Assembly: GCF_001046635.1 (NCBI RefSeq)
Contig: NZ_KQ130452.1
Span: 980,668 to 1,044,667, forward strand
Source of the DNA: Novosphingobium barchaimii LL02
GTDB taxonomy: Bacteria; Pseudomonadota; Alphaproteobacteria; Sphingomonadales; Sphingomonadaceae
Direction of reading: 5' to 3'
DNA: 64,000 nucleotides
Notes under the pieces: generated by a model
Seen by the model: the letters and a program-made list of their open reading frames with translations, nothing else
Told to the model about the DNA's origin: nothing
The model's database searches: none
In this document: piece by piece, positions 43,116 through 60,247 of the stretch
Position numbering within the stretch: the stretch's first letter is position 1
Layout: the number at the start of each line of letters is the position of its first letter
Translations under genes and position numbers: made by a program

Positions 43116-43124
43116 GGGCCTTGG

Positions 43125-45927: not shown

Positions 45928-47015
45928 CAACCGATTCCGCGCGCGATCAATGGGCCGAGGCGGTTGGCGACGCTTAGCGGCAGGCGCTGCCAGACCTTGA
46001 TCTGAAGCGATAGCTTGCCGCTGGTGGGATCGGCGTCCCGTTTTGCAGCCCCGGGCTGGGTCCAGGTGGCATAAGTCAGCGGTTCCGGCTCGAAACCCCA
46101 GTTGCGTTTGAAGTGATAGGCGCCGCTCTGCGTCTTGGAGCGTCCGAAATCGAACACGCTCGCGCCGCGCCGGCGGGCATGAAGCATCAGTTCGTAGTAC
46201 ATGCGGTCATTGGCGCGCAGGCGCCGCGCATCCCAGGTGCCGCCGCCCCAATAAGGCATGACCGCGCCCTGGTGGTACACGCTGATGACGCTGGCGACCG
46301 GCTTGTCCTCGTGCCGCACGGTCAGGATATCGGTGTCCGCGCCGAACCCGTCGACCACCGAATCGAGCAGCGCGCGCGGGAAGACCGGGGTGCCGAGATT
46401 GCGGTAGCTTTCGCAGAACACCGCGTAATGGGCGGCGCGGTCGCGCTCGGATGTGCCGACCTCGATGGTCAGGTCGATGCCCAGCGAGCGGCGCACTTCG
46501 GCGCGTTGCTTGCGCGGGATCGAGGTGAGCTGCGCTTCGTCGTCCGCCGCGAGGGGGCGGGCGAAACCTGCATGGGATTCGGTCTTGAGCGCCCAGCCTG
46601 CATTCGAACTGGCACCCTCTGCGGGTAGCACACCGCCGCGCAGTTCGATCGAGGGACACGACAGGCGCAGGGCGAGTTCCTCCACCGCCGCGAACACCGC
46701 ATCCGGGTCTGCATAATCGGTGGCCAGCAAGCCGCCGCCCACCGCGAAGCCAGTCGAGGCCAGGATACGGCCGAACACCGGGGAATGGACCGCGTCAAGC
46801 GGCAGGAAGGCGACGATCTCTCCGCCGCGCTCCTGCACCAGGGCAAGCGCCTTGTTGTCGGTAGCCGCCGCCACGGACACGAACCACGCAGGGCGGTGGA
46901 AAGGAGTGCCCAGCGGATGGCGCGCGACAAAGCCTTCAAGCCGGGCGATCTCGCCAGGGTCGGCCAGATCGACAAGGCGCACGTCCGAGAGCAGCGGCAC
47001 GAACGGCGCGTTCAT
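45927..47015 (-). CDS. XrtA-system FemAB-like GNAT protein
   Basis: A 362-residue protein of the FemAB/BcsL (GNAT-fold) superfamily, the version found in exosortase A loci. Segments RKQRAEVRRSLGID and GAYHFKRNWGFEPEPLTY in the C-terminal half fit the family. FemAB proteins transfer aminoacyl or acyl groups to cell-wall or polysaccharide acceptors. Here an acylation or aminoacylation of the exopolysaccharide is likely. Four-base overlap with the deacetylase gene upstream (ATGA) and one-base overlap with the glycosyltransferase. Confidence 0.88.
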   Translation of the reverse strand: MNAPFVPLLSDVRLVDLADPGEIARLEGFVARHPLGTPFHRPAWFVSVAAATDNKALALVQERGGEIVAFLPLDAVHSPVFGRILASTGFAVGGGLLATDYADPDAVFAAVEELALRLSCPSIELRGGVLPAEGASSNAGWALKTESHAGFARPLAADDEAQLTSIPRKQRAEVRRSLGIDLTIEVGTSERDRAAHYAVFCESYRNLGTPVFPRALLDSVVDGFGADTDILTVRHEDKPVASVISVYHQGAVMPYWGGGTWDARRLRANDRMYYELMLHARRRGASVFDFGRSKTQSGAYHFKRNWGFEPEPLTYATWTQPGAAKRDADPTSGKLSLQIKVWQRLPLSVANRLGPLIARGIG

Positions 47016-47911
47016 GCGGCCAGGGCCGGAGGAGGCGCCACGGTGCGCCCCGCTTCGCGCGCGGCGAGTTCGTCCATCCGGCCCCAGCGAAAGTCGCCGA
47101 TCAGACGGCCCAGCTTATCCGCCATGACGCCAAGATTGGTGTAGTGCCGCAGGCGCGAGCGCATCGAGGCGTTCGCCACGCGCGGCTGCCCGGGATCGAT
47201 CTCCCAGGGGTGAAAATAGAACACCGCCGGGCGCTCGTCCTCGCGGTTCACCTGCCGGATCGCCCAGCGCGAGAAGCCGTAAGGCAGCACCCGGAAGAAC
47301 CCGCCGCCGCCCGCCGCCAGCCGGCGACCGGCGAACCGCGCGGTGGTAACGGGAATCTCGACGAGATCGCTGCCGGCAATAGGCTTGAAGGCAAAGCGCG
47401 GCGCCTCGCGCCAGCCGTAGTGATCATGGGCGATGGGCGCGACGCTGGAGCTATAGGCATAGCCCTGCTCGGCCAGTACCTCGAAGGCCCAGGGCGTGCG
47501 CGCATCGATGGAAAAGCTGGGCGCGCGGTAGCCGGTGACGGCGGCGCCCGAGGTATCCTCGATCACCTTGCGGGCCTTTGCGATATCGGCCGCGAAAGCC
47601 TCCCGGCCAAGGCGGAACACGCGTTCGTGGTCCCAGCCGTGGCTGGCGATCTCGTGGCCGTCCTGGACGATGCGGCGCATCAGGGACGGATGACGCTGCG
47701 CCACCCAGCCCAGCGTGAAGAACGTGCCCTTCACCCCGGCATCGGCGAACAGCTGCAGTATCTCGTTGCAATTGCGCTCGACGCGGGTTGCGCACGAATT
47801 CCAGTCGCTGCGGTCGATCACCTTTTCGAAGGCGCCCACCTGAAACCAGTCCTCGACATCGACGGACAGGCCGTTGATCTGATCGTTCGCAGTCTGGCCG
47901 GGCAGTGTCAT
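47012..47911 (-). CDS. XrtA-system polysaccharide deacetylase (NodB/CE4 fold)
   Basis: This 299-residue deacetylase has GLSVDVEDWFQVG as motif 1, with the paired Asp residues, then SHGWDHERV with metal-binding histidines, RAPSFSID as motif 3 and FYFHPWEID near the C terminus. It removes N-acetyl groups from polysaccharide sugars. No signal peptide is evident, as is normal for this subgroup. It comes after the ATPase gene, from which it is separated by a 149-base spacer holding a repeat pair, and overlaps femAB by four bases. Confidence 0.92.
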   Translation of the reverse strand: MTLPGQTANDQINGLSVDVEDWFQVGAFEKVIDRSDWNSCATRVERNCNEILQLFADAGVKGTFFTLGWVAQRHPSLMRRIVQDGHEIASHGWDHERVFRLGREAFAADIAKARKVIEDTSGAAVTGYRAPSFSIDARTPWAFEVLAEQGYAYSSSVAPIAHDHYGWREAPRFAFKPIAGSDLVEIPVTTARFAGRRLAAGGGGFFRVLPYGFSRWAIRQVNREDERPAVFYFHPWEIDPGQPRVANASMRSRLRHYTNLGVMADKLGRLIGDFRWGRMDELAAREAGRTVAPPPALAA

Positions 47912-47947
47912 GGTGGCGAAAGCTCTTTTTGGGACGATGGGGCGTAG

Positions 47948-48044
47948 GCAAGCTCAGCCTGAGCGGGGATGATGGGGTGCAGCGGGGTGTGGGGAAGGAG
48001 AATTTGCCCCAGCCCCGCTCAGGCTGAGCCTGTCGAAGCCCCGG
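47948..48044. repeat. Inverted pair of dispersed palindromic repeat, locus 2
   Basis: GCAAGCTCAGCCTGAGCGGGG at 47948-47968 (without its full tail) faces the element at 48013-48044, which reads CCCCGCTCAGGCTGAGCC followed by TGTCGAAG. The pair can form a stem of about 18 base pairs between the ATPase and deacetylase genes. Confidence 0.85.
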
Positions 48045-48060
48045 CCGCAGACTCCCATGC

Positions 48061-49326
48061 TCAGGCGGCGCTGCGCTGGCCGTCGCCGCTTTCGATCCAC
48101 TCGATCAGCATGGTGAGCGTGTGGCGCAGCGTGCGCGACTGCTCGTCAAGGCGGGCCTCCAGCTTGGCGGTTTGCGCGGCGGCCTGCGCCAGATCGGCCT
48201 GGAGCGCGGCGATGGCCTCGCTTTCGCCGTGATCAGCGGCCGCGACGGCGGAGGCTGCGGCAAATGCTTCCTCGCGCGCTTCGGCAGCGGCGGCAAGTTC
48301 GACCATGGCCGACTGCAGTTCACCGATCTGCGTATCGCGGTCGGCCAGTGCCGCCTCGATCAGTTCGATGGCGGCAGCAGCGTTGATCGCGTCGGACGGC
48401 ACGGGCGCGAAGGCTGCGGGCTGTTCGAACGAGGCGGAATACTGCACCGTTGCGGCAGGCACCGAAACCGGCGCGGTTTCCGCCACCGGCTGCGGGCTGA
48501 CCAGTGCCAGAGCACCGTCGTCGCTCAGTTCGTCCATTACCTGCGCCAGCATTTCGCTGTCGATGTGGCTGCGCTGGTCGACCGCGCCCAGCAGCAGCAG
48601 GCGGTTGACGATCTGGTTGATCCGGCGCGGAATGCCGCCGGTCGCCTCGTGAATGTCGGCAAAGACGGAAGGCTCGAAACTGGGATTGCCCTGCCAGCCC
48701 ACGCAGGTCAGGCGGTGCTCGATATAGGGCTGGATTTCCTTGGCCTGCATCGCGCCCAGATGATGGGTGGCGATCACGCGCTGACGCAGTTGTTCCAGCT
48801 GGTCGCTCTCAAGCAGGGTGCCGCGAAATTCCGGCTGGCCCAGCAGCAGCGTCTGCAGCAGCGGCTGCGAGCCGAGCTGGAAGTTGGACAGCATGCGCAG
48901 TTCTTCCAGCGCGCTGATCGAGAGGTTCTGCGCCTCGTCGACGATCAGCAGGCTGCGGCGACCCGCGCGCGCTTCCTCATGCAGGAACGCCTCGATCGCG
49001 CCCAGCGCGGAGGCCTTGTCGTGGCCCGCGACGTGGATGCCGAAAGACTGCGCGACGACGTGGACGATCTCCTCGCCGTCGAGCGCGCTGGTCACCACGT
49101 TGGCGGCGGTCATGCGCGCGGGGTCGATCGTGGCCATCAGGTAGGCGACCAGCGTGGACTTGCCCGCGCCGACTTCGCCAGTGATGACCACGAAGCCCTC
49201 ACCCTGCGCAAGGCCGTAGCCCAGGTAGGACAGCGCCTTGCGGTGCGTCAGGCTCTCGAAATAGAAAGCCGGGTCGGGAGTGAGCTGGAAGGGCCTTGCG
49301 TCGAGCCCGTAGAAATCATCGAACAT
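48061..49326 (-). CDS. XrtA-associated ATPase (GspA/ExeA-like)
   Basis: This 421-residue AAA ATPase has Walker A GEVGAGKST at 50-58 and Walker B LLIVDEAQ at 126-133, followed by NPSFEPSVFADIHEATGGIP and RRINQIVNRLLLLG in the lid. The C-terminal ~80 residues are Ala/Glu-rich and read as a coiled coil. Such ATPases accompany exosortase A loci, and their role in polymer or protein export is unclear. ATG 49326 was picked because AAGGA lies ten bases upstream and the frame 5' of it is a shadow of the barrel gene. Confidence 0.92.
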   Translation of the reverse strand: MFDDFYGLDARPFQLTPDPAFYFESLTHRKALSYLGYGLAQGEGFVVITGEVGAGKSTLVAYLMATIDPARMTAANVVTSALDGEEIVHVVAQSFGIHVAGHDKASALGAIEAFLHEEARAGRRSLLIVDEAQNLSISALEELRMLSNFQLGSQPLLQTLLLGQPEFRGTLLESDQLEQLRQRVIATHHLGAMQAKEIQPYIEHRLTCVGWQGNPSFEPSVFADIHEATGGIPRRINQIVNRLLLLGAVDQRSHIDSEMLAQVMDELSDDGALALVSPQPVAETAPVSVPAATVQYSASFEQPAAFAPVPSDAINAAAAIELIEAALADRDTQIGELQSAMVELAAAAEAREEAFAAASAVAAADHGESEAIAALQADLAQAAAQTAKLEARLDEQSRTLRHTLTMLIEWIESGDGQRSAA

Positions 49327-49339
49327 CGCGTTTTCCTTC

Positions 49340-51088
49340 TCAGAAACTGTAGCGCAGGCCGGCGAGCGCCGAGGCCGTCCAGAAGTCGTCGATCGCGGGC
49401 GCATCGCGCGTCGCCCCATCGATGCCGACCGCCAGGGTACCGCGCAGGCGCGGCGTGAACATCCGGTAATAGCTGGCAGATGCGCCATAACCGTTAACGT
49501 CGCCGGTGAGGGGATCGTTGCTGCTGATCCAGTTGGCGTAGATATTGGTCGACCAGCCCGCATCGCGGCCCAGCTCGCCGCCAAGGAAGGCGGCCAGCCA
49601 GTAGTTTTCGTCGACCACTCCGGCAGCCGAGGCGAGAACGGTGTCGCGGGCGGCGAAGAAGTTGCGGCGGTCGTACCCCAGGCCAAGACCGGCGTTGAGG
49701 CGGCCCACCTTCATCGAATAACTGGCGCTCACGCCGCGCGCGCGGAAGAACGCCGAGCGCACCGAACCCAACGCGCCGGAAAAGCAGTTGCTGCCGTCCA
49801 GCGAGGCGACGCAGCCGCGCAGCTCGCCGGTGATCGGATCGCGCACGACCTCGAAATCGTCGGGCAACTGGTCGATAGCGCGGTTGAGCTGGCCGCCGAA
49901 GCCGCCGACATTGTCGTAGACCGAAACGCTCAGCTGGGTGCGGTCGTTGGGCGCATAGGCCAGGGTGCCGCCGAAGCTGGTGGAGCCGTAGCGGCGCCCG
50001 ACATGGGCGGAAAGCGAAGTGCGCCGGCTGGGGCGCCACATCACCGCGACGTCCCAGATCAACCCGCTGACATCATAGGCCAGTTCGCGCGGGCCGGACT
50101 TGTCGGTGACATAGCGGCCGTCCGAGCCGACCACGGGAATGCCGTCCTCATCGCGCACCGCGTCGCGGCTGGAGATTTCGACGTCCTCGTACCCGATCGC
50201 GCCCACCACCTGAACGGTGCGGCTGACCGGCACGGTGACCAGAGCGCGCGCCTGCATGTCGCGGGCGCGCTGGTCGAGGTTGGACATGTCCTCCTGATAG
50301 AAGGTGCCCGCAGCGCCCACGCCAACCGGCAGCACCGTGCCCGGCGCGAAGCCGGCCTGCACGTCGGCCATCTGGGTCACGCTCTTGTCGAAGACATCGG
50401 CGGCGCCGGTGCCCGAATTCGCGCGGAACCCGTCGGACTGCTCGACCTTGGTGAAGCCTGCGCGGTAATTGGCCGAAACGTCGAGATCGCCCGCACGGGT
50501 GGTCACCGAGGGCCCTGCGTAGACCGAATAGATCGAGGTCTTGTACTTGTCGTTGACGCCGCTGCCGACCAGCGCCGAGCCGCCGTTGCCGACATTGGCC
50601 TGAGTGGCGAGGCCGCCTGCCTCTAACGTCACGCCCGGCACGATCGTGGTGTAGCCCCGGGCAATGCCGCTGATCGCGTCACCGTCGCGCGCGCGCTTGC
50701 CCCAGCCGAACTGGCGCTCGTAGCGCAGCGAGACCGAGGCCCCGTTGTTGCGCCCCGAGATGGCCGCGTCGACACCGACCGCCGCCTGGGTATAGGTCAT
50801 CACGTCGCTGCCCGGCGAAAGCTCGGCGGTGACGATCTGGTCGACTTCGATGTAAGGCACGATGTCAACGCGCTTGCCGCCGCCTCTGCCGCCCCGCCTG
50901 TCGGAGCGGCTGGACTTGCCGGACGAGACATCGGAAGCGCCCTGCCCGCCGCTGCCCATTCCCGCACCGGCGCCGTCGTAGCCGGTAGACTGCGCCTGGC
51001 CGGCAACCGGCATCGCCAGCGCGGCAATCGCCGCGAGCGAAACCAGTCCCGCATCCTTGCGGCGCATTGACGCCTTCATCCAGGTCAT
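49340..51088 (-). CDS. XrtA/PEP-CTERM-system outer-membrane beta-barrel protein
   Basis: 582 residues with a signal peptide (VSLAAIAALAMPVAGQAQS). A Gly/Ser/Arg-rich stretch (~35-75) follows, then repeated amphipathic beta strands ending in LRYSF, the terminal-Phe signature of outer-membrane barrels. It belongs to the large barrel family that accompanies exosortase A loci and may conduct the polysaccharide across the outer membrane. A lone Cys pair lies in the predicted plug/loop region (RGCVASLDGSNCFSG). Four-base overlap with the kinase gene supports the start at 51088. Confidence 0.88.
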   Translation of the reverse strand: MTWMKASMRRKDAGLVSLAAIAALAMPVAGQAQSTGYDGAGAGMGSGGQGASDVSSGKSSRSDRRGGRGGGKRVDIVPYIEVDQIVTAELSPGSDVMTYTQAAVGVDAAISGRNNGASVSLRYERQFGWGKRARDGDAISGIARGYTTIVPGVTLEAGGLATQANVGNGGSALVGSGVNDKYKTSIYSVYAGPSVTTRAGDLDVSANYRAGFTKVEQSDGFRANSGTGAADVFDKSVTQMADVQAGFAPGTVLPVGVGAAGTFYQEDMSNLDQRARDMQARALVTVPVSRTVQVVGAIGYEDVEISSRDAVRDEDGIPVVGSDGRYVTDKSGPRELAYDVSGLIWDVAVMWRPSRRTSLSAHVGRRYGSTSFGGTLAYAPNDRTQLSVSVYDNVGGFGGQLNRAIDQLPDDFEVVRDPITGELRGCVASLDGSNCFSGALGSVRSAFFRARGVSASYSMKVGRLNAGLGLGYDRRNFFAARDTVLASAAGVVDENYWLAAFLGGELGRDAGWSTNIYANWISSNDPLTGDVNGYGASASYYRMFTPRLRGTLAVGIDGATRDAPAIDDFWTASALAGLRYSF

Positions 51089-52125
51089 CCCCTGTATCCG
51101 TAATAAGAACCGAAGCGGCGGCCACTCGGGCTGAACTGCGCCGCATTAAGCAGAAGCTGCAAGTTCGGGCAGGCGCCAAGCAGCGAGATCGCATCGTTGA
51201 GCGCACCGCGCCCGGTCTTGTCGGCGCGCACGATCACCATCGTCTGGCCGACATACTTGGCCAGCTCCGCCGCCGGCGAGGCCGATAGCGCGGGCGGCGA
51301 ATCGAAGATCACCATGCGATTGGGAGAGCCCTGCGTCAGCCGGTCAAGCACGCGCGCGGTGCGCGCGCTGGCGATATATTCGCTGTCGTGGCTGGTCGTG
51401 TCGCCTGCGGGCAGCACCCAGAGACCCGGAATATCGGTGCCCAGCACGCAGTCGGCGACATCCAGTTCCTCATCCATCAGCGCGTCCATCAACCCCGGAC
51501 CGCCCGGCAGGCCGAGCGCGGAAAGGATCGAGGGCTTGGCGAAATCGGCATCCACTAGCAGAACTTCGCTGTCCTTCTCGGCGGCGATGGAAAGCGCGAG
51601 GTTGAGCGCGCAGTACGTCTTGCCCTCACCCGGATGGGGCGAGCTGACGAGGATGCGCTGGGCCATCGGGCCTGCCTTCTGTCGGCGCAGGTCCGCCGCC
51701 TGCACCAGCAGCTGGCGCTTGACGATGCGGAACTCTTCCAGAAGTTCGGTTACGGTGCCTTCGGGCACGATCAGGCCCTGGGCGCGCAGATGCTCCCGGT
51801 CGACCGGGTGGGCCTCGCCGTGGAAGATGGCCGGTTCGGGGGCAGGTTCGGGCACGGCGACCGGCGCGGCAGCAACCGCAGGAGCCGGGGCAGCAACCGC
51901 AGGCGCAGCGGGCGCAGGAGCCGGTGCAGGCACGGGCGCAGCCGCGACCTGCTGGGCCTCGGGCGGCTTTACCGGAAAACGGCGCGAAGGCGGCTCGGTC
52001 GAAACCGGCAGCGGCTTGCCGAGGAAGCTGTTGAAGTCGAACTTTCCGGCGGCGCGCTCGAACAGCGATTGGCCGGCGGACTCGCCCTGCTGCCTGGGTT
52101 CGGGGATCTTGTGCTGATCGGTCAT
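51085..52125 (-). CDS. XrtA-associated tyrosine autokinase (BY-kinase)
   Basis: This 346-residue bacterial tyrosine kinase is the cytoplasmic half of a split chain-length/kinase pair. Walker A is SPHPGEGKTY at 162-171, Walker A' LLVDADF at 189-195, and Walker B MVIFDSPP at 271-278. The C-terminal tail has a tyrosine cluster (Y341, Y342, Y344 in GSYYGYRG) for autophosphorylation. A Pro/Ala-rich linker occupies ~60-98. It should control polymer length with the Wzz-like protein, whose gene lies ten bases upstream. ATG 52125 follows GAGGGAAC at suitable spacing. Confidence 0.92.
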   Translation of the reverse strand: MTDQHKIPEPRQQGESAGQSLFERAAGKFDFNSFLGKPLPVSTEPPSRRFPVKPPEAQQVAAAPVPAPAPAPAAPAVAAPAPAVAAAPVAVPEPAPEPAIFHGEAHPVDREHLRAQGLIVPEGTVTELLEEFRIVKRQLLVQAADLRRQKAGPMAQRILVSSPHPGEGKTYCALNLALSIAAEKDSEVLLVDADFAKPSILSALGLPGGPGLMDALMDEELDVADCVLGTDIPGLWVLPAGDTTSHDSEYIASARTARVLDRLTQGSPNRMVIFDSPPALSASPAAELAKYVGQTMVIVRADKTGRGALNDAISLLGACPNLQLLLNAAQFSPSGRRFGSYYGYRG

Positions 52126-52135
52126 ACAGGTTCCC

Positions 52136-53659
52136 TCAGGCCACCATGCCGCGCTGAATGAATTCGGCGGCAAGCAGCACCACGAACAGCCCGCAAAGCG
52201 CGGCGCAGCTGGCGTAGAAGTATTTCAGGCGCTTGGCACGCAGCGCGCGGGCACCATCGGTCAGGCTCTGCGAAATCGCGCCGAGCACCGGCAGCCCGGT
52301 CGCGCGCTCCAGCCCCGAGGTCGTCGCGAACACCGAACGCACGCGGCTGAGGGCGAAGGCCGCCGCGCAGCCGCCCGCAAGGCCGACTACCAGCACGCCC
52401 AGCAGCAGCACCGGACGGTTGGGCGCAACCGGCGAGCGCGGGGTCGTCGGCGGATCGACCACTTCGAACTTCACCGCTTCACGCTCGGTCTTCACTTCGC
52501 CGCGCAGGCGCAGTTCCTCACGGTCCTGCAGGAGTTTGTCATACTGCTGGCGCAGCACGTCGTAGTCTCGGTTGATGCGGGTCGCCTGGGTGGCAAGCTC
52601 CGGGTCCTGGATCGCCGAGGCCGTGAGCGAAGCGATGTCCGACTGGAGCGCGGCCTTGCGCGACTGGAGCGCCTGGACATTGGCCTGACGCTCTGCCCGG
52701 ATCGACTGGAGCGAGCTATAAGCGGGATTGATCGTCCCCCCGCCGTTCGCCGCATCCTGCGAAGCCGCGCCCCGCAGCGCCGCCACCTGATTGCGGGCAG
52801 CGATCACGTCGGGGTGGTTTTCGGTGAGGCCGCGTGCGCGCATCCCGGCGAGGTCCGCCTGGGCGCGGGCAAGTACGGACTGCGGACTGCCATCGGCAAC
52901 GCCGCCCGCGATCGTGCGCGGGGTTCCGGCAAGCTGGCCGTCGATCGCGGCGGAAGCGCTCTGCGCAGCGGAAAGGTCGGCCTCGATGTCCCGCAGCGAA
53001 GCGCGCGAGGTTTCGAGCCGCTGCACCATCGCGGCGCCGCCCAGCGCCATTTCCGGGTGCTGGGCCTCGAACGCGGTGCGCTTGCTTTCAGCCGATTCCA
53101 GCTCACGCTCGCGCTGCTGGAGCTGCTGGTTCACGAACTGCATCGTCTCGACCATGTCGCCCCGGTCGCCCGAGAGATTTTCCTCGCGGAAGATGTCGAT
53201 CAGCTTTTGCGCGACGCTCTGCGCCAACTGGGCATTCTCGGGGTCCGAAAAGGACTTGTTGTTGGCGGTGGCGGTGATCTCGAAGAGGTTGTCCTCCTGG
53301 CTCACGACCTTGACGTTGTTGGCCAGCTTGAGGACCGCGGCTTCCATCTGCTTCGGGTTCTGGATCGTGTCGCCCAGACGCGTCGCGCGCACCACCTTCT
53401 CAAGGTTGACGGCGCTGGTCAGGGTTTGGCGGATACGCTCGATATCGCGTTTCTTGTCGGCCACGCCGATGCCAACCTGCTCGGCAAGGGCGTCGTCGAG
53501 CTGGATGAAGATGCGGGCGCGCGATTCGTAGCTGTTGGGCACCATGGCAACCACCAGCCAACCGGCCATGCACACCGCCCACGCAGCGCCCAGCGCTATC
53601 CAGCGGCGATGCCAGACGCTGTGCAGCGCGCTGAGCAGTTCTTCGTAGAGCGTATCCAT
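52136..53659 (-). CDS. XrtA-system polysaccharide chain-length determinant (Wzz/PCP family)
   Basis: 507 residues with N-terminal (~18-40) and late (~415-437) membrane helices around a long periplasmic, coiled-coil domain, as in Wzz/PCP proteins. The TTPRSPVAPNRPVL segment before the second helix matches the family proline-rich motif. A third hydrophobic helix near 483-503 follows a short cytoplasmic loop. It acts with the tyrosine autokinase downstream and the export protein upstream to set exopolysaccharide length. Neighbouring gaps are 17 and ten bases. Confidence 0.9.
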   Translation of the reverse strand: MDTLYEELLSALHSVWHRRWIALGAAWAVCMAGWLVVAMVPNSYESRARIFIQLDDALAEQVGIGVADKKRDIERIRQTLTSAVNLEKVVRATRLGDTIQNPKQMEAAVLKLANNVKVVSQEDNLFEITATANNKSFSDPENAQLAQSVAQKLIDIFREENLSGDRGDMVETMQFVNQQLQQRERELESAESKRTAFEAQHPEMALGGAAMVQRLETSRASLRDIEADLSAAQSASAAIDGQLAGTPRTIAGGVADGSPQSVLARAQADLAGMRARGLTENHPDVIAARNQVAALRGAASQDAANGGGTINPAYSSLQSIRAERQANVQALQSRKAALQSDIASLTASAIQDPELATQATRINRDYDVLRQQYDKLLQDREELRLRGEVKTEREAVKFEVVDPPTTPRSPVAPNRPVLLLGVLVVGLAGGCAAAFALSRVRSVFATTSGLERATGLPVLGAISQSLTDGARALRAKRLKYFYASCAALCGLFVVLLAAEFIQRGMVA

Positions 53660-53676
53660 GGTTTCGATCCGGCCTC

Positions 53677-54318
53677 TTAGAACATGCTCTCGGGGATGAT
53701 GATCACGTCGCCCGGGCTCAGCATGACATTGGCCTTGCTGTCACCCTTTTTGAGCAGATCGCCCAGCTTCAGGTCGTATTCCTTTTGCGTGCCGCTCGCC
53801 TTGTCGAAGCGGATCAGGCGCGCCTTGTTACCTGCCGCATATTCGGACAGGCCGCCAACCGCAATCATCGCGTCAAGCACGGTCATGTTCGCGCGGTACG
53901 GGATCGAGGCCGGCTTCTCGGTCGCGCCGACGATGCGGATCTGCTGGCTGAACGTGCCGGAGAACCCGTCGACGATGACAGAAACCAGCGGGTCCTCGAT
54001 ATATTGCGAGAGCTGGAGGCGGATGTCCTCGGCCAGCATCGAGGGCGTCTTGCCCACGGCCGGCATGTCGGTGATGAGCGGTGTGGTGATGCGCCCATCG
54101 GGCCGCACCTGCACTTTCGCGCCCAGTTCAGGGTTGCGCCAGACGAACACGGTCAGTTGGTCCAGCGGGCCGATGATATATTCCTCGCCCGGCCCTTCCT
54201 GCATCGACACGAAGGATGCAGGCGGCAACTGCGACCCGGAAGTAGAGGCGCATCCCGTCAGGGCGACGCTGGCAAGCGTGGAACCAGCCAGGAGTCGGGT
54301 GAGGCGGCGATGCGGCAT
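53677..54318 (-). CDS. XrtA-system polysaccharide export lipoprotein (Wza-like)
   Basis: A 213-residue outer-membrane auxiliary protein. Its lipobox LTGC puts the lipidated cysteine at C23. The export domain starts at EEYIIGPLDQLTVFVWRN, followed by the poly-export segment (QLSQYIEDPLVSVIV) and a SLBB-like domain with VGGLSEYAAGNKARL. It should form the channel collar for the exopolysaccharide. ATG 54318 gives a proper signal peptide; a longer frame does not. It begins a tightly packed run of ten minus-strand genes after a 186-base spacer holding a large inverted repeat. Confidence 0.92.
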   Translation of the reverse strand: MPHRRLTRLLAGSTLASVALTGCASTSGSQLPPASFVSMQEGPGEEYIIGPLDQLTVFVWRNPELGAKVQVRPDGRITTPLITDMPAVGKTPSMLAEDIRLQLSQYIEDPLVSVIVDGFSGTFSQQIRIVGATEKPASIPYRANMTVLDAMIAVGGLSEYAAGNKARLIRFDKASGTQKEYDLKLGDLLKKGDSKANVMLSPGDVIIIPESMF

Positions 54319-54453
54319 GGAGACTTCCCTGTATGCGCCTGCCTGCATCCCGTGCGCGAAGGCAAAGGGCAGGACTTGGCAAAATCCGGTGTCCGGTATC
54401 GGTTGAAAGGGTGAATATTGCGTTAGCCTTGACGGGCTAATTAAATGCGGTCC

Positions 54454-54509
54454 CATAACGGGACGGAGCGAAAACAAGGGTTAACGCCCGTTTCCTCCGT
54501 CCCGTTATG
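54454..54509. repeat. Exact 15-bp inverted repeat around a 26-base loop
   Basis: CATAACGGGACGGAG at 54454-54468 is the exact complement of 54495-54509. The right arm overlaps the stop codon of the decarboxylase gene. On the minus strand the structure would form directly after that gene and ~135 bases before the export gene. It lacks a 3' T-run, so it may be an mRNA-stabilising or attenuating hairpin, or a DNA site. Confidence 0.75.
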
Positions 54510-55737
54510 CCTGGACGAGCATTTCCGCCGCCGGTCCCTGCCCCAGGAACATCGCGGGGCTGGCGCTGGCGCCGTAGGCCCCGGCGCAGAACACCGCGAT
54601 CAGATCGCCCACATCGGCGCGCGGAAAACCGCCTTTGTCGGCCAGCTTGTCGAGCGGCGTACACAGGCACCCCACGATCGAGGCTTCTTCCTCCACCCCG
54701 GCGCCAAAGCGCGTGGCGATGGCCGAAGGATAGTTGCGCCGCACCACCGTGCCGAAATTGCCCGAGGCTGCAAGCTGGTGATGCAGCCCGCCGTCCGTGA
54801 CGAGAAACACCTCGCCGTGGCTGATCTTGCGGTCGACGATCCGCGCGAGATAGACCCCCGCCTCGCCCACCAGATAGCGGCCCAGTTCGATGCAGAACTC
54901 GGTTTCGCGCAGGACTTCGGGGAGCGATTCCATCTGCTGCGCCAATAGCTGCCCAACCAGCGGCAGATCGACCGGCGTGTCACCGGGGAAGTAGGGAATG
55001 CCAAGGCCCCCGCCCAGATTGCAATGCGGCAGCGGCGCGCCGCTTTCCTGTGCCAGCTGCGCCGCCAGAGCGAGCGCCTGCGCCTGCGTCTCGGCGATGG
55101 CCTCCGCTCCCAGCGCCTGGCTGCCCGCGAAGATGTGAAAACCGCGCCACTCCGCGCCGCTTTCGATCACCGTGCGGACCAGCGCCGGCACCCGTTCGGC
55201 ATCGATGCCAAAGGGCTTGGCGCCGCCGCCCATTTTCATGCCAGACCCCTTGAGGTCGAAGCTGGGATTGACCCGGATCGCCAGACGCGGCGTTTTGCCG
55301 AGGCGCTCACCGATGGCGATGGCGCGGGCGGCCTCGCCCTCCGATTCGAGGTTCAGGGTGACCCCTGCCAGAATCGCCGCTTCCAGTTCGGCATCGCGCT
55401 TGCCGGGACCGGCGAAGCTGACCTTGGCCAGCGGCAGACCCGCCCCCCGCACGATCTCCAGTTCCCCGCCCGAGGCGATGTCGAATCCGTCGACCAGCCC
55501 CGCCATCAGCGCCAGCAGCGGCGGATAGGGATTGGCCTTCACCGCATAGTGCAGCGCCACCCGCTGCGGCAGCGCGGCGCGAAGCTCGGCCACCCGGCGG
55601 CGCACGTGATCGGCGCTGTAGACGAACAGCGGCGTTGCGCCGGCCTCCTCGACCCAATGGGTGACAGGGCGCCCGCCGATGGCAAGAACACCATCGATGG
55701 CGTCGTACCCGGCCGGGATCGGACCAAGCGCTTTCAC
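54505..55737 (-). CDS. XrtA-associated PLP-dependent decarboxylase (DapDC/ODC fold III)
   Basis: This 410-residue fold-type III decarboxylase has the PLP lysine K67 in HYAVKANP, a GGGLG phosphate-binding loop, and a GCLCTPLDKLAD segment with the substrate-site cysteine. It resembles diaminopimelate and ornithine decarboxylases but belongs to the subgroup found with exosortase A. It probably decarboxylates an amino acid, possibly carrier-bound, as the first step of a small-molecule pathway with the ligase and ACP. ATGA overlap with the ligase gene upstream. True diaminopimelate decarboxylation is an alternative. Confidence 0.9.
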   Translation of the reverse strand: MKALGPIPAGYDAIDGVLAIGGRPVTHWVEEAGATPLFVYSADHVRRRVAELRAALPQRVALHYAVKANPYPPLLALMAGLVDGFDIASGGELEIVRGAGLPLAKVSFAGPGKRDAELEAAILAGVTLNLESEGEAARAIAIGERLGKTPRLAIRVNPSFDLKGSGMKMGGGAKPFGIDAERVPALVRTVIESGAEWRGFHIFAGSQALGAEAIAETQAQALALAAQLAQESGAPLPHCNLGGGLGIPYFPGDTPVDLPLVGQLLAQQMESLPEVLRETEFCIELGRYLVGEAGVYLARIVDRKISHGEVFLVTDGGLHHQLAASGNFGTVVRRNYPSAIATRFGAGVEEEASIVGCLCTPLDKLADKGGFPRADVGDLIAVFCAGAYGASASPAMFLGQGPAAEMLVQA

Positions 55738-57272
55738 GCGGCCGTCTCCGCCGAAATCTGGGCGGCAAGGCCGGTCCGGTCGATCTTGCCGTTCGGCCCG
55801 ATCGGCATCGCATCGCGCCAGTGGATCACTTTGGGCTGCATGAAATTCGGTAGTTCCTGCATGAGCTTGCGGGGCAATTCCTCCGATGCATCGAGGCTTG
55901 ATGGCGCCGCCCTTACGACGAGGTGCACCGCCTGTCCAAGCCGCTCGTCAGCCACGCCCAGCGCCACCGCCTCGGCGACGAGGCCGGTGCCCAGCGCTGC
56001 TTCCTCGATCTCCTGCGGGGAGATGCGGTTGCCCGCGCTCTTTATCATCGCATCGCGCCGGCCGACGAAATAGAGCAGGCCATCGGCGGCCCGCTTCACC
56101 CGGTCCCCCGACCACACCGCGATCCCGCCATAGCGCGAAGCCGCGGGCGCAGGCCTGTACCGCTCGGCGGTACGCGCGGCGTCCTGCCAGTACCCTTGCG
56201 CGACCAGCGGCCCGCAGTGCACCAGCTCACCCTCCTGTCCATCCTCAGCAACCTCGCCCAAGTCGTTGATCACGAGGATTTCGGCATGAGGGATCGCCTT
56301 GCCCATCGAGGTCGGATGGCTATCGACAAGGTCCGGGTCGAGATAGGTCGAGCGGAACGCCTCGGTCAGTCCGTACATGGGAAACAGCCGCGCCTGCGGG
56401 AACAGCGCGCGCAGGCGGCGGACCAGATCGACCGTCAGCGCGCCGCCGCTATTGGTCAGGCGCCGCAGCTTCGCCGCCGTTTCTGCCGGCCAGTCCAGTT
56501 CGCAGACCTGCACCCACAACGGCGGCACGGCGGCAAGCGTGGTGACCCCGTGCCGCCCCGCCGCCTTCACGACATCGCGCGGCATCAGGTAGTCGAGCGG
56601 GATCACGCAGCCGCCCGCAAACCACGTAGAGAGCAGCTGGTTCTGCCCGTAATCGAACGAAAGCGGCAGCACCGCCAGCGTCCGGTCATCCGCCGCAAGG
56701 CCCAGATAATCGGCGACACTTTGCGCCCCCAGCCACATGTTGGCATGGCTCAGCATCACCCCCTTGGGCCGCCCGGTGGAGCCGCTGGTATAAAGGATCG
56801 CGGCAAGGTCATCCGGGTCCGCCTCGGACGGCAGCATATCGCCGCCCAGATCGGCGGCGGTCTGCAATGCCTCCCCCTCGCCCAGCAGGCGGCAGCCGCC
56901 GGGCACGTCGGCCGCGTTCAGCGTCGACAGCCTTGCGGGCGTGGCGATCAGCAGCACAGACCCGCTATCGCCCAGAATATGCGCGACCTGCGCGTGCTTG
57001 AGCAGCGGATTGACCGGCACATGCACCAGCCCCGCCCGCGCCGCCGCCAGCGGCATGAGGCAGGTCAGTTCGCCCTTTGCGGCCCAGGTGGCGACACGCG
57101 CGCCTTTTTCGGGCACCTCGCGGGCCAGCCAAGCAGCCAGGCGTGAGACACGCGATCTTAAGTCCTTCCAACTAAGCACGCCTTCACGCAGTACCAGAGC
57201 ATCGCCGTCATCGTGCCCGCGCAGGGCCAGATGGTCGAGCGGCAGGATGGATTGTTCAAGACTGCCGGGCAT
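55734..57272 (-). CDS. XrtA-associated AMP-dependent acyl/aminoacyl ligase
   Basis: This 512-residue ANL ligase has ILYTSGSTGRPKG (P-loop, near 163), MYGLTEAFRSTY, the hinge FVGRRDAMIKSAGN and the C-terminal lysine loop PNGKIDRTG. It is the adenylating enzyme that regularly accompanies the PLP decarboxylase in exosortase A loci. It may load the carrier protein encoded at 58355. The ATG at 57272 is preferred over a TTG two codons earlier. It diverges from the acetyltransferase gene with only ~28 bases between starts, so the two promoters must overlap the coding ends. Confidence 0.9.
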   Translation of the reverse strand: MPGSLEQSILPLDHLALRGHDDGDALVLREGVLSWKDLRSRVSRLAAWLAREVPEKGARVATWAAKGELTCLMPLAAARAGLVHVPVNPLLKHAQVAHILGDSGSVLLIATPARLSTLNAADVPGGCRLLGEGEALQTAADLGGDMLPSEADPDDLAAILYTSGSTGRPKGVMLSHANMWLGAQSVADYLGLAADDRTLAVLPLSFDYGQNQLLSTWFAGGCVIPLDYLMPRDVVKAAGRHGVTTLAAVPPLWVQVCELDWPAETAAKLRRLTNSGGALTVDLVRRLRALFPQARLFPMYGLTEAFRSTYLDPDLVDSHPTSMGKAIPHAEILVINDLGEVAEDGQEGELVHCGPLVAQGYWQDAARTAERYRPAPAASRYGGIAVWSGDRVKRAADGLLYFVGRRDAMIKSAGNRISPQEIEEAALGTGLVAEAVALGVADERLGQAVHLVVRAAPSSLDASEELPRKLMQELPNFMQPKVIHWRDAMPIGPNGKIDRTGLAAQISAETAA

Positions 57273-57300
57273 ATGCAAGGAAAGGCTCCGCGAGGACGTG

Positions 57301-58317
57301 GTGAAGGTCGATTATCACTCTGATCTTAAGGAAGTGCAATCGGATGGCCAGCTTGCGCAGGCGCTGTCCGAAACGCACCAGAGCGCGCCCTTCGACCGGC
57401 TGGCGTGGTGGCAGGGGCTGTCGCAGCATTGCGGGCTGACACCGCTGCTGGCGGTAGCGCGCGGGACTGATGATGCCCTTGCCGTGCTGCCGCTGGCCGG
57501 AAAGGCAGGCCACCTGACCGCGCTGTCCAACTGGTACACCTTCCGGTTCCGCCCGATTCTGGTGGGTGCGGGCGCGCCGCTGGATGCGCTGGCGGCAAGT
57601 CTGAAATCGCGCGCGCATCGCATAACCCTCTCCCACGTCCCCGACGAGGACGGCAGCGCCTCCGCGCTCGAAACCGCGTTCCGCAAGGCTGGGTGGCTGG
57701 TCCTTCGCGAGGTTTGCGACACCAACCGCATCCTGCCGCTGGAAGGACGCTCCTGCGACGCATATCTGGCTGCCCGCCCCGGCAAACTGCGCACCACCCT
57801 GAAGCGCAAATCGGGCAAGGTGGCCACACAGATCCTCACCGAATTCGACGGCGAGGCTTGGGCGCAGTACGAATCGATATACGCCGAAAGCTGGAAGCCC
57901 GAGGAAGGATCTCCCGATTTCCTGCGCGCATTTGCCCGCGCCGAAGGCGCGGCGGGCCGCCTCAGACTGGCCCTCGCCCACGACGCGGCAGACCCGCAAG
58001 GCCCCGCCATCGCCGCCCAGATGTGGACGGTGGAGGGAGGCACCGCCTTCATCCACAAGCTGGCTCACCGCGAGGCAGCCCGCCCCCTCTCGCCCGGCTC
58101 CGTGCTCACCGCCGCCCTGATGCGCCGCGTGATCGACGTCGACCGGGTAACGCTGGTCGATTTCGGCACCGGCGACGATCCCTACAAGCAGGATTGGATG
58201 GAACAGCGACGCGCACGCTACCGGCTGGACATGTTTCGCCCGTTTTCTCCGCGAAACTGGCCCGTTCTCGCCCGGATCGGCCTGCGCGGTCTTGCCGCAG
58301 GTGCGAAGCGCGGCTAG
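57301..58317 (+). CDS. GNAT/FemAB-like acyltransferase of the XrtA module
   Basis: About 338 residues. The second half (YLAARPGKLRTTLKRKSGK, then YESIYAESWKPEEG, GGTAFIHKLAHREAA and DFGTGDDPYKQDWM) matches the GNAT-fold BcsL/CelD-like acyltransferases. The start is uncertain: GTG at 57301 or 57298 is preferred because an in-frame ATG at 57247 would overlap the divergent ligase gene. It leads a plus-strand operon of acyltransferase, carrier protein and two hydrolases. Probable role: transfer of an acyl or aminoacyl group made by the ligase and ACP. Confidence 0.8.
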   Translation: MKVDYHSDLKEVQSDGQLAQALSETHQSAPFDRLAWWQGLSQHCGLTPLLAVARGTDDALAVLPLAGKAGHLTALSNWYTFRFRPILVGAGAPLDALAASLKSRAHRITLSHVPDEDGSASALETAFRKAGWLVLREVCDTNRILPLEGRSCDAYLAARPGKLRTTLKRKSGKVATQILTEFDGEAWAQYESIYAESWKPEEGSPDFLRAFARAEGAAGRLRLALAHDAADPQGPAIAAQMWTVEGGTAFIHKLAHREAARPLSPGSVLTAALMRRVIDVDRVTLVDFGTGDDPYKQDWMEQRRARYRLDMFRPFSPRNWPVLARIGLRGLAAGAKRG

Positions 58318-58354
58318 ACGCCGCCCGTTAATAATGAGACTGCGCCGAGGGGCC

Positions 58355-58615
58355 ATGCCAGACGAAACCGACCTGCTGCTGCGCCGCATCCTGACGGATG
58401 TGCTGGGCCTAAAGCCCGGCCAGGCCGATGCATTCGATGCCGATACCGGCCTGTTCGGCCACTTGCCCGAACTCGATTCGATGGCGGTGGCCGGCCTGCT
58501 CACCGAACTGGAAGACCGCCTCGACATCATGATCGAGGACGACGAGATCGACGGCGAGATGCTGGAGACCTACGGCGGCCTGCTTGCTTTCGCCGAGGCG
58601 AAGCGCGGCTCCTGA
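58355..58615 (+). CDS. Acyl carrier protein of the XrtA module
   Basis: An 86-residue acidic four-helix carrier protein with the phosphopantetheine attachment serine S42 in LPELDSMAVAG. The usual DSL triad reads DSM. ATG 58355 follows GAGGGGCC directly; two earlier in-frame ATGs add Arg-rich, unlikely sequence. It lies between the acyltransferase and hydrolase genes and presumably tethers the intermediate activated by the ligase encoded at 55734. Confidence 0.88.
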   Translation: MPDETDLLLRRILTDVLGLKPGQADAFDADTGLFGHLPELDSMAVAGLLTELEDRLDIMIEDDEIDGEMLETYGGLLAFAEAKRGS

Positions 58616-58628
58616 TGGGCATGTGCCG

Positions 58629-59303
58629 ATGACCCCGTCGAGCTGGCCCTGCCCGCTCCCCGGTGGCGGCACTTGCGAGGAATTCGCGCTCCAGTTCGAC
58701 GCGGGTCGCAGCGTGCGCCTGCTCGTCGTCCCGGCGCTGTTCGACGAAGGCAACCGGATGCGGCGCTTCACCGTAGAGGTGATGCGCCGGCTGGACGCGG
58801 CCGGAATCGACAGTTTCCTGCCCGATTTTCCAGGCTGCAACGAAAGCCTGCAGGCGCTGGAAGCACAGGACCCGACCGACTGGCTGGACGCCATGACGGC
58901 AGCGGCCCGGCACTTCAACGCCGGTCACGTTCTGGGCATTCGCGGCGGCTGCCTGTTCACCCCGCAGCGCCTGCCCGCCTTTCACTACGCCCCGGTCAAG
59001 GCCGCCTCGATCCTGCGCCAGATGGTGCGCGCCCGCATCCTCGCCTCGCGTGAGGCGGGCCGCGAGGAGAACCGCGAACAGCTGGCACAAATCGCGCTGG
59101 CGGACGGGATTGCCCTGGCCGGCTATTCACTTGGCGCCGATTTCTACCGCCAGTTCGAACCGATGACGGCGGATGACGATGCCGTGATCGTCGCACAGGA
59201 CCGGCTGGGCGGCAGCGGCCTGTGGCTGCGCGCCGAACCTGACGAGAACGCCGCTCAGGCAGATGCGCTGGCGGCGATCCTTGCTTCGGCGCTTGCATCA
59301 TGA
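58629..59303 (+). CDS. Exosortase A-associated hydrolase 2 (alpha/beta fold, nucleophile absent)
   Basis: 224 residues with an alpha/beta-hydrolase layout: PLPGGGTCEEFALQF, VVPALFDEGNRMRRF and LPDFPGCNESLQ. Where a hydrolase would show GxSxG the sequence reads GIRGGCLF (103-110), with no serine. This loss is consistent with the family. It may be a non-catalytic partner of the next gene product or use another residue. Its final four bases overlap the hydrolase 1 start (ATGA). Confidence 0.85.
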   Translation: MTPSSWPCPLPGGGTCEEFALQFDAGRSVRLLVVPALFDEGNRMRRFTVEVMRRLDAAGIDSFLPDFPGCNESLQALEAQDPTDWLDAMTAAARHFNAGHVLGIRGGCLFTPQRLPAFHYAPVKAASILRQMVRARILASREAGREENREQLAQIALADGIALAGYSLGADFYRQFEPMTADDDAVIVAQDRLGGSGLWLRAEPDENAAQADALAAILASALAS

Positions 59304-60076
59304 GCCGGCGGCATTTCACGTTCCTGTGCGGCGGCGACGGCCTTGTCGCTACGCTGGATCCGGCGCCGGGACGCACCGCGCTGCTCATCGTCTCGGGCGG
59401 CAACGAAGTGCGCGCAGGAGCATGGAACGGGCAGGCCCGCTTCGCCGCGCGGATCGCCGGGCAAGGCTTTCCAGTCCTGCGCTTCGACCGGCGCGGCGTG
59501 GGTGACAGCGAGGGGGTCAACGCAGGTTTCCGCTCCAGCGCCGACGACCTCGCCGCAGCGGCCCGCGCCTTGCGCGCGCAGTGCCCGCAGGTCGACCGCG
59601 TGGTGGGGCTGGGCAACTGCGACGCCGCCAGCGCGCTGATGCTGGCACAGGGCGCGGGGCTGGACGCTCTGGTGCTGTCGAACCCCTGGACCATCGAGGA
59701 CGACGCCGAGGAAGCGCCTGCCGAAGTGGTGCGCGATCACTACCGCCGCCGTCTCGCCGATCCGGCGGCGATCAAAAGGTTGCTGACCGGGCAGGTCTCG
59801 CTGGCGAAACTGGCGCGCAGCCTTGTCTCGGCAATGCGCCCCGCCCCTGCCGCACCCGATGGACTGGCCGCGCAGATGGCGCAGGGCATCGCCGGGTTCG
59901 CAGGCGACATCCGCTTTCTCGTCGCTGGGCGGGACCGCACCGGGCTGGCCTTCCTCTCACGCTGGGACAAGGCGGATGCGCGTATCCGCACCTGCGCGGG
60001 CGCAACGCACAGCTACGTCGAACCCGAAGCGCAGGACTGGCTGGTGGAGCAGGTTCTGGAAGTGCTGCGCGGCTGA
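59300..60076 (+). CDS. Exosortase A-associated hydrolase 1 (alpha/beta fold, Cys nucleophile)
   Basis: This 258-residue alpha/beta-hydrolase has RFDRRGVGDSEG (61-72) and a nucleophile elbow GNCDA at 105-109, where C107 stands in place of serine. The late GATHSYVE segment gives the histidine. A Cys nucleophile suggests acyl transfer or thioester chemistry, fitting a carrier-protein module. It is the last gene of the plus-strand operon, and a block of dispersed repeats follows before trxB. Confidence 0.88.
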   Translation: MSRRHFTFLCGGDGLVATLDPAPGRTALLIVSGGNEVRAGAWNGQARFAARIAGQGFPVLRFDRRGVGDSEGVNAGFRSSADDLAAAARALRAQCPQVDRVVGLGNCDAASALMLAQGAGLDALVLSNPWTIEDDAEEAPAEVVRDHYRRRLADPAAIKRLLTGQVSLAKLARSLVSAMRPAPAAPDGLAAQMAQGIAGFAGDIRFLVAGRDRTGLAFLSRWDKADARIRTCAGATHSYVEPEAQDWLVEQVLEVLRG

Positions 60077-60096
60077 GGCCGGGTATGCCGATGGGC

Positions 60097-60211
60097 CTTC
60101 GACACGCTCAGGCTGAGCGGACCTGAGCACTACCGCCGCAATCTCCTCCGACCCGCTCGATTCCGCTCAGGCTGAGCCTGTCGAAGCCCGTTCAAGCTGA
60201 GCTTGTCGAAG
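60097..60211. repeat. Cluster of three dispersed palindromic repeats, locus 3
   Basis: Units lie at 60097-60120 (CTTCGACACGCTCAGGC then TGAGCGG), 60163-60186 (CCGCTCAGGCTGAGC then CTGTCGAAG) and 60189-60211 (with AAGCTGAGCTTGTCGAAG). They occupy the spacer between convergent hydrolase 1 and trxB, where they may serve as terminators or protein-binding sites. Confidence 0.85.
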
Positions 60212-60247
60212 GCCGCTCGCACCGTGTGATCCCGCGCGATGTAAGCA

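What the first reader, a model, noticed from the sequence alone, without database searches (positions are those of the whole stretch)
54505..60076. Decarboxylase-ligase-acyltransferase-carrier-hydrolase module of unknown product
Beside the export genes lies a complete small-molecule kit: a PLP decarboxylase, an AMP ligase, a FemAB-like acyltransferase, a stand-alone acyl carrier protein and two unusual alpha/beta hydrolases, arranged as two divergent operons. The gene set resembles an aminoacyl- or amine-loading pathway. A consistent model is: the ligase charges an amino acid onto the carrier, the decarboxylase converts it, and the acyltransferase and Cys-hydrolase move it to the polysaccharide or a sorted protein. 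Members are known as exosortase-associated, but I know of no assigned chemistry. This is my best candidate for an undescribed system.
Basis: partly seen in the sequence, partly recalled or inferred. Interest (0 to 1): 0.75.

Follow-up and report, generated by a model that had tools for sequence, protein, structure and literature searches.

The report
Carrier-protein route to beta-alanine
Three of the six genes look like a machine that loads aspartate onto a small carrier protein and trims it to beta-alanine, a vitamin B5 building block, and genome comparisons suggest that it stands in for the missing textbook enzyme, which remains to be tested at the bench.

Summary
The six genes are real and lie where stated, but form two units. 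The core is ligase (TIGR03098), decarboxylase (TIGR03099) and stand-alone ACP. The ligase's substrate half is closest to VinN in the PDB and keeps the three VinN residues that read aspartate-type substrates. The decarboxylase groups with BtrK, which acts on ACP-bound glutamate, not with LysA. Prediction: aspartate is loaded on the ACP by its beta-carboxyl and decarboxylated there to beta-alanyl-ACP. In 149 genomes of the window's family the decarboxylase is in 132, none with panD; the 17 without it include all 5 panD genomes and all 5 lacking panC. In a second family 47 of 165 have it, 66 have panD, 2 have both (about 19 expected). It persists in 32 genomes without exosortase A. So the triad probably supplies beta-alanine for pantothenate/CoA in place of PanD. 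The rest tracks exosortase A (hydr1 in 97 of 100 XrtA+, 1 of 49 XrtA-) and may use the same carrier. The reaction, beta-alanine release and in vivo role are inferred; seven panC+ genomes with neither route, and 54 with neither in the second family, remain unexplained.

The parts
54505..55737 (-). BtrK-type PLP decarboxylase (TIGR03099, dCO2ase_PEP1); predicted isoaspartyl-ACP decarboxylase
   Evidence: 589.2 bits; best PDB match BtrK 216.8 bits against 146.4 for the best DAP decarboxylase; motif LCTPxD as in BtrK, not the CETGD type of LysA; tree groups it with BtrK
55734..57272 (-). VinN-like AMP-forming ligase (TIGR03098); predicted L-aspartate (beta-carboxyl)--ACP ligase
   Evidence: 631.4 bits; pocket half best PDB match VinN 3wvn; D/S/R fall exactly on VinN Asp230/Ser299/Arg331
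57298..58317 (+). GNAT (Acetyltransf_6), accessory unit, acceptor unknown
   Evidence: 61.0 bits; start codon; present in 57 of 68 loci
58355..58615 (+). stand-alone acyl carrier protein, third member of the core triad
   Evidence: PP-binding 24.2 bits; Ser of the DS motif in 92 of 92 aligned sequences; 68 of 68 loci
58629..59303 (+). hydr2-like alpha/beta hydrolase relative with Arg at what looks like the nucleophile elbow
   Evidence: weak TIGR03101 match; R105 conserved in at least 90% of 72 sequences; that this is the elbow is inferred from the motif
59300..60076 (+). hydr1 alpha/beta hydrolase (TIGR03100) with a conserved Cys, Asp and His
   Evidence: 211.8 bits; C107, D212, H237 conserved in at least 90% of 72; tracks XrtA
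41220..54477 (-). neighbouring XrtA/PEP-CTERM exopolysaccharide locus (context, not part of the triad)
   Evidence: TIGR03108, 03109, 03087, 03019, 03006, 03015, 03007, 03027 over cut-off; 03018 and 03016 under it

Best explanation
The ligase activates the beta-carboxyl of L-aspartate and loads it on the phosphopantetheine arm of the stand-alone ACP, leaving the alpha-amino acid end free. The PLP enzyme then removes the alpha-carboxyl from the ACP-bound isoaspartyl group, giving beta-alanyl-ACP. Its main role in these bacteria is to supply beta-alanine for pantothenate and CoA in cells that lack PanD. In exosortase A genomes an added unit (hydr1, hydr2, GNAT) probably draws on the same beta-alanyl-ACP for the polysaccharide or its proteins. 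Shown here: gene identities, conserved pocket and motif residues, linkage of the triad, the phyletic patterns. Inferred: the reaction, the aspartate substrate, release of beta-alanine, use by PanC, and everything about the accessory unit.
For: Pocket: VinN is the best PDB match of the ligase's substrate half (100.8 bits; best single LgrA domain 61.7, whole two-domain LgrA chain 96.6); with the whole ligase VinN has 173.9 bits, the best single LgrA domain 152.2, the two-domain LgrA chain 270.9. VinN Asp230/Ser299/Arg331 align with our D/S/R (index check). Among 102 aligned ligase rows Asp is in 97 of 97 ungapped and Arg in 97 of 99; the two without Arg are an NRPS domain and a second, different ligase; a further 18 of 18 have D, S or T, and R. 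[quoted passage not shown] Decarboxylase: nearest to BtrK. Linkage: ACP and ligase in 68 of 68 loci. Phyletic: decarboxylase in 132 of 149, panD in 0 of these 132; the 17 without it hold all 5 panD+ and all 5 panC- (Fisher 1.8e-11). Inside XrtA-negative genomes 0 of 32 against 10 of 17 (2.4e-6), so exosortase does not explain it. Second family: 47 and 66 of 165, both in 2 (3.4e-10). Phylum sample: 0 of 27 with panD, 128 of the other 272. Same-genus pairs with one route each: G196/G268, G314/G654, G727/G641. A published table lists no ADC in the 17 sphingomonad rows that I saw and PYD3 in 2 of them (PMC7142369, passages).
Against: Seven panC+ genomes have neither panD nor the decarboxylase (G168, G171, G209, G248, G259, G275, G277), and G259 and G277 have same-genus relatives that keep it. 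In the second family 54 of 165 have neither, and 2 have both (one of them 8% contaminated). Fisher values ignore shared ancestry, and I did not tabulate all same-genus pairs. Sub-cut-off relatives are a weak control: 31 of 41 such genomes have panD, but 27 of those 31 are one family; of the other 14, 4 have panD. No thioesterase for release is constant: hydr1 is missing in 31 of the 32 XrtA-negative triad genomes. Outside the family the triad is not always seen whole: no ligase found in L161, no ACP in L162. No pantothenate gene was noticed beside the triad, though neighbours were not scanned for pan genes. The triad sits in polysaccharide clusters in several species, which fits decoration at least as well. 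Other beta-alanine routes were not searched for in these genomes; the published table counts Aam or GabT transaminases, candidate alternatives, in most of the sphingomonad rows seen.
Confidence: 0.6

Rival explanations
1. The triad makes beta-alanyl-ACP (or a close relative) only for decoration: the GNAT and the Cys-hydrolase pass it to the deacetylated polysaccharide or to sorted proteins. The absence of panD is an accident of lineage.
For: Export gene of the XrtA/EPS locus in the flank of 49 of 57 six-gene loci (of the 8 others, L024 is cut off by its contig end); relatives inside polysaccharide clusters with deacetylase and glycosyltransferases in S. meliloti and Aureimonas, and beside flippase or sugar genes in Shinella and Paracoccus.
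Against: Triad decarboxylase kept in 32 sphingomonads without XrtA, 31 of them also without hydr1; exclusion of panD in two families and same-genus swaps; five of the losses fall with lack of panC.
Confidence: 0.2
2. The carrier holds gamma-glutamyl and the product is GABA-ACP, as in butirosin.
For: BtrK, a glutamyl-ACP decarboxylase, is the best PDB match of the decarboxylase.
Against: The butirosin loading enzyme is not an AMP ligase (recalled); our ligase has the VinN aspartate residues; the panD pattern points to beta-alanine.
Confidence: 0.08
3. The decarboxylase works on a free amino acid (diaminopimelate, lysine, ornithine, aspartate) and the ligase/ACP do something else.
For: Member of the LysA superfamily (218.7 bits to lysA); a relative in Azoarcus stands without ligase or ACP in the stretch.
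Against: Below the lysA cut-off and without the LysA-type CETGD motif; separate LysA in the nearest genome; ligase and ACP neighbours in 68 of 68 loci.
Confidence: 0.08

Closest known systems
VinN / VinL / VinO and FlvN-type starter loading (vicenistatin, fluvirucin)
   Same: AMP ligase with Asp230/Ser299/Arg331, stand-alone ACP, PLP decarboxylase acting on the ACP-bound amino acid (PMC11284099, passages and section 5; residues per PMC7756342, passages)
   Different: Here in exosortase/EPS or other surroundings and tied to absence of panD; I did not search the window for PKS or VinM/VinK-type genes
BolO / BolC / BolN (bolagladin)
   Same: Proposed Asp to isoaspartyl-ACP to beta-alanyl-ACP with a BtrK-like enzyme (PMC7756342, passages)
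   Different: There the product starts an NRPS lipopeptide; free beta-alanine did not rescue the bolN mutant
BtrI / BtrK (butirosin)
   Same: Decarboxylase of an ACP-bound amino diacid (PMC7857480, passages); shared LCTPxD motif and tree position
   Different: Substrate glutamate; antibiotic pathway
PanD (aspartate 1-decarboxylase)
   Same: Proposed net reaction Asp to beta-alanine
   Different: Pyruvoyl enzyme (PMC7142369, passages), no carrier (recalled); the two rarely occur together
AmaB route to beta-alanine in Rhizobium etli
   Same: Another replacement of PanD (PMC7142369, passages)
   Different: From uracil degradation; PYD3 is counted in 2 of the 17 sphingomonad rows seen

Membership tests
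TIGR03099 exosortase A-associated decarboxylase | score over the curated cut-off 478.45 | tested here: met
   589.2 bits
TIGR03098 exosortase A-associated ligase | score over the curated cut-off 592.35 | tested here: met
   631.4 bits
TIGR03100 hydr1 | score over the curated cut-off 168.45 | tested here: met
   211.8 bits
TIGR03101 hydr2 | score over the curated cut-off 202.75 | tested here: not met
   24.9 bits; divergent relative only
LysA (TIGR01048) | score over 297.9 and CETGD-type motif | tested here: not met
   218.7 bits; LCTPLD where the LysA set has CETGD or CESSD
VinN-type aspartate-reading ligase | Asp230, Ser299, Arg331 | tested here: met
VinN-type aspartate-reading ligase | activates the beta-carboxyl of an aspartate-type substrate | not testable with these tools
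   needs an assay
ACP-linked decarboxylase (BtrK/VinO type) | stand-alone ACP and ligase encoded with it | tested here: met
   window, and 68 of 68 loci; exceptions outside the family: L092, L161 no ligase, L162 no ACP
ACP-linked decarboxylase (BtrK/VinO type) | acts on ACP-bound, not free, amino acid | not testable with these tools
   needs an assay
Replacement of PanD | present where panD is absent and panC present | tested here: met
   132 of 132 panC+ panD-; second family 45 of 47 lack panD (panC not tested there)
Replacement of PanD | every panC+ panD- genome has it | tested here: not met
   7 of 149 exceptions
Obligate part of the exosortase A system | absent where XrtA is absent | tested here: not met
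   32 of 132 decarboxylase-bearing genomes lack XrtA over cut-off

The most novel reading that the evidence does not exclude
The gene pair named 'exosortase A-associated ligase and decarboxylase' together with its ACP is a widespread carrier-protein route to beta-alanine that replaces PanD in sphingomonads and in many bacteria of at least one other family. The carrier would then make the beta-alanine that forms part of its own phosphopantetheine arm, and the exosortase-linked genes would be a later user of the same beta-alanyl carrier.
Probability: 0.55. Interest if true: 0.86.

Novelty: new variant of a known kind. Interest (0 to 1): 0.74.

Why it matters
The chemistry is known from a few antibiotic and lipopeptide pathways, but these families carry names without a function, and four searches of the open-licence library found no primary-metabolic role. 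If right, it fills the missing source of beta-alanine, hence of vitamin B5 and CoA, in a large group of environmental bacteria; it explains why PanD is missing there; and it moves two families from 'exosortase-associated' to core metabolism. It is directly testable by knockout, feeding and E. coli rescue.

Tried and rejected
Six genes as one inseparable module: rejected, two blocks. Decarboxylase as LysA or the only lysA: rejected on score, motif, tree and a separate LysA in the nearest genome. Amino acid loaded through its alpha-carboxyl: rejected on chemistry, since alpha-decarboxylation on the carrier needs a free alpha-carboxyl. 3-Methylaspartate instead of aspartate: not excluded by the pocket; no glutamate mutase was searched for; disfavoured by the panD pattern. 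Hydr1 as the obligatory beta-alanine thioesterase: disfavoured, missing in 31 of 32 XrtA-negative triad genomes. Structure models of hydr2 and GNAT could not be made. Profile searches of hydr2 and GNAT against the PDB gave one match at E 0.076 (an alpha/beta hydrolase) and none. Haft 2006 (PMC1569441, a term search of the main text) holds none of six terms for these enzymes.

Rows dropped before counts: 12 of 80 loci with under 5.5 kb upstream of the decarboxylase; decarboxylase hits under the curated cut-off are left out of presence counts and told apart (in the second family G645 has a partial hit and counts as without); XrtA counted only over its cut-off (100; 114 at E 1e-40). hydr1 was counted at E 1e-20 (98; 97 over the cut-off). 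The 102 ligase rows include one locus twice (L002 and L005) and some fragments. Presence lists were typed by hand into; for the phylum sample counts were entered, the zero overlap having been read by eye.
Full report
Between 54505 and 60076 lie a ligase and a decarboxylase on the minus strand, and a GNAT, an ACP, a hydr2-like protein and hydr1 on the plus strand. Ligase, decarboxylase and hydr1 exceed the cut-offs of their NCBIfam families; ACP and GNAT match Pfam domains; the hydr2-like protein is a divergent relative far below its family cut-off. The exosortase A exopolysaccharide locus follows on the minus strand.

Loci. Of these, 68 have at least 5.5 kb upstream of the decarboxylase. Ligase and ACP are there in 68 of 68, hydr1 and hydr2 in 59, the GNAT in 57. 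Nine loci hold ligase, decarboxylase and ACP without the other three, and none of these has the export gene or XrtA in its flanks; two of them (L028, L054) still have a hit to the locus ATPase, L028 also to the deacetylase. So the six genes divide into a constant core of three and a removable rest.

Distant relatives. A tblastn search of plasmids found 68 records. I fetched 14 regions. A carrier protein, by annotation or by my profile, is present in 13 of 14 (weakly in L097) and a ligase in 12 (in fragments in L097); L098 has an NRPS adenylation domain instead, and Azoarcus L092 has neither. Several sit in polysaccharide surroundings: Sinorhizobium meliloti pSymB and Aureimonas with deacetylase and glycosyltransferases, Shinella beside a flippase, Paracoccus beside sugar genes; no exosortase is annotated in those stretches, but the plasmid gene tables are incomplete and I did not search them for XrtA. 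Others stand beside NRPS, KAS III-like or ectoine synthase genes. The Azoarcus relative lies in a formylmethanofuran dehydrogenase cluster.

Ligase pocket. For the substrate half of the ligase the best PDB match is VinN, the 3-methylaspartate ligase of vicenistatin (100.8 bits); with the whole ligase VinN outscores each single gramicidin synthetase domain, though the two-domain chain ranks first. VinN Asp230, Ser299 and Arg331 fall on our Asp, Ser and Arg by position count. Over 102 aligned rows Asp is found in 97 of 97 ungapped and Arg in 97 of 99, the two exceptions being a different NRPS domain and a second ligase; the Ser position is Ser 84, Thr 14, Cys 1. Eighteen further ligases all have Asp, Ser or Thr, and Arg. 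[quoted passage not shown] free beta-alanine did not rescue the bolN mutant (PMC7756342, passages). A review states for VinN/VinL/VinO that thioester formation is required before decarboxylation (PMC11284099, passages and section 5). The VinN structure paper itself was not held.

Decarboxylase. The best PDB match is BtrK, the decarboxylase of glutamyl-BtrI (216.8 bits), ahead of the best DAP decarboxylase (146.4). A FastTree tree of 65 sequences (support values not printed) puts TIGR03099 and its plasmid relatives with BtrK and apart from the LysA proteins; an ornithine decarboxylase-like set falls on a long branch beside that group. TIGR03099 and its relatives carry LCTPxD, or close variants in a few, where the LysA set has CETGD or CESSD. 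The nearest held genome has a separate LysA at 437 bits; the window's own assembly is not held.

Which pathway? Beta-alanine is needed for pantothenate, and the usual source is PanD. The same 149 genomes of the window's family, at least 95% complete, were searched for several families. TIGR03099 is in 132, panD in 5, panC in 144, XrtA over cut-off in 100, hydr1 in 98. All 132 have panC and none has panD. The 17 without the decarboxylase hold all 5 panD genomes and all 5 genomes without panC; 7 are left unexplained. A looser search gave two hits in each of those 17, one LysA-like and one ornithine decarboxylase-like (the naming is my reading). Fisher tests are: 1.1e-5 for panD, 1.8e-11 for panD or lack of panC, and 2.4e-6 for the latter inside the 49 XrtA-negative genomes (0 of 32 against 10 of 17). 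Exosortase therefore does not explain the pattern. hydr1 does follow exosortase: 97 of 100 against 1 of 49.

Independent checks. In 299 genomes of the phylum 27 have TIGR03099 over cut-off and none of these has panD, against 128 of the other 272; ten of the 27 lie outside the window's family (0 of 10, p 0.0024). Of 41 genomes whose best hit lies under the cut-off, 31 have panD, but 27 of them belong to one family; of the other 14, 4 have it, so this control is weak. In a second family, 165 genomes, 47 have TIGR03099 over cut-off, 66 have panD and 2 have both, one of these 8% contaminated (p 3.4e-10); 54 have neither. Three same-genus pairs carry one route each: G196/G268, G314/G654, G727/G641; others differ without such a swap (G182/G259, G214/G277). 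All these tests treat genomes as independent, which they are not; the second family and the pairs matter more than the p values.

Neighbourhoods. Nine XrtA-less sphingomonad stretches keep ACP, ligase and decarboxylase without GNAT, hydr1 or hydr2 nearby, six of them with a TrxR hit. Of ten stretches from outside the family, eight have hits to hydr1 and hydr2 (in L165 possibly one ORF), nine a detected ACP (not L162) and nine a detected ligase (not L161); no XrtA hit was seen in these ten with my sphingomonad-based profile.

Mechanism. I take the triad to make beta-alanyl-ACP from aspartate (about 0.75) and to be these cells' beta-alanine source for CoA (about 0.6). The release step is open: hydr1 has a conserved Cys, Asp and His and would make a thioesterase or transferase, but it is missing where XrtA is missing, so another thioesterase would be needed there. 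hydr2 has Arg at what looks like the nucleophile position and may be a non-catalytic partner. The accessory unit may draw beta-alanine from the ACP for the polysaccharide; nothing here tests that. That hydr2 and the GNAT follow exosortase as hydr1 does rests on locus evidence only; they were not searched genome-wide.

What is known. Literature searches for exosortase with ACP and decarboxylase, with acyl-CoA ligase, and for beta-alanine with sphingomonad names found no assigned function in the titles and abstracts listed or the passages read (open-licence papers only). [quoted passage not shown] its text says that S. meliloti 1021 lacks panD yet grows without beta-alanine or pantothenate. Craig et al. 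2011 on N-acyl amino acid synthases near PEP-CTERM genes was seen only as a reference line; the paper is not held.

Noticed in passing
L092:11872-13185: A relative of the decarboxylase (45.7% identity; motif LCAPHD) sits in the formylmethanofuran dehydrogenase cluster of Azoarcus KH32C plasmid pAZKH without ligase or ACP; it could be an amino acid decarboxylase of the methylofuran pathway.
   Followed up: partly
L099:5995-10905 and L102:5890-9837: BtrK-type decarboxylase, AMP ligase and ACP together with an ectoine synthase homologue on Streptomyces and Rhizobium gallicum plasmids: an unassigned small-molecule cluster.
   Followed up: no
L090:13400-17000: Sinorhizobium meliloti pSymB carries ligase, decarboxylase and ACP in a polysaccharide cluster with a deacetylase, UDP-galactopyranose mutase and an O-antigen ligase; no exosortase is annotated in the 31 kb, though the plasmid gene table is incomplete.
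   Followed up: partly
window 60089-60219: Long imperfect inverted repeats (35 and 32 nt arms, 81-83% complementary) between hydr1 and trxR, of REP-like look.
   Followed up: no
window 58629-59303: The hydr2-like family keeps an Arg at what looks like the nucleophile elbow in at least 90% of 72 sequences, so it may be a catalytically dead partner of hydr1.
   Followed up: partly
L097:4293-5930: The ligase hit in Rhizobium sp. CC-CFT758 is split over three overlapping ORFs and the carrier hit is weak: a decayed copy or a sequencing fault.
   Followed up: no
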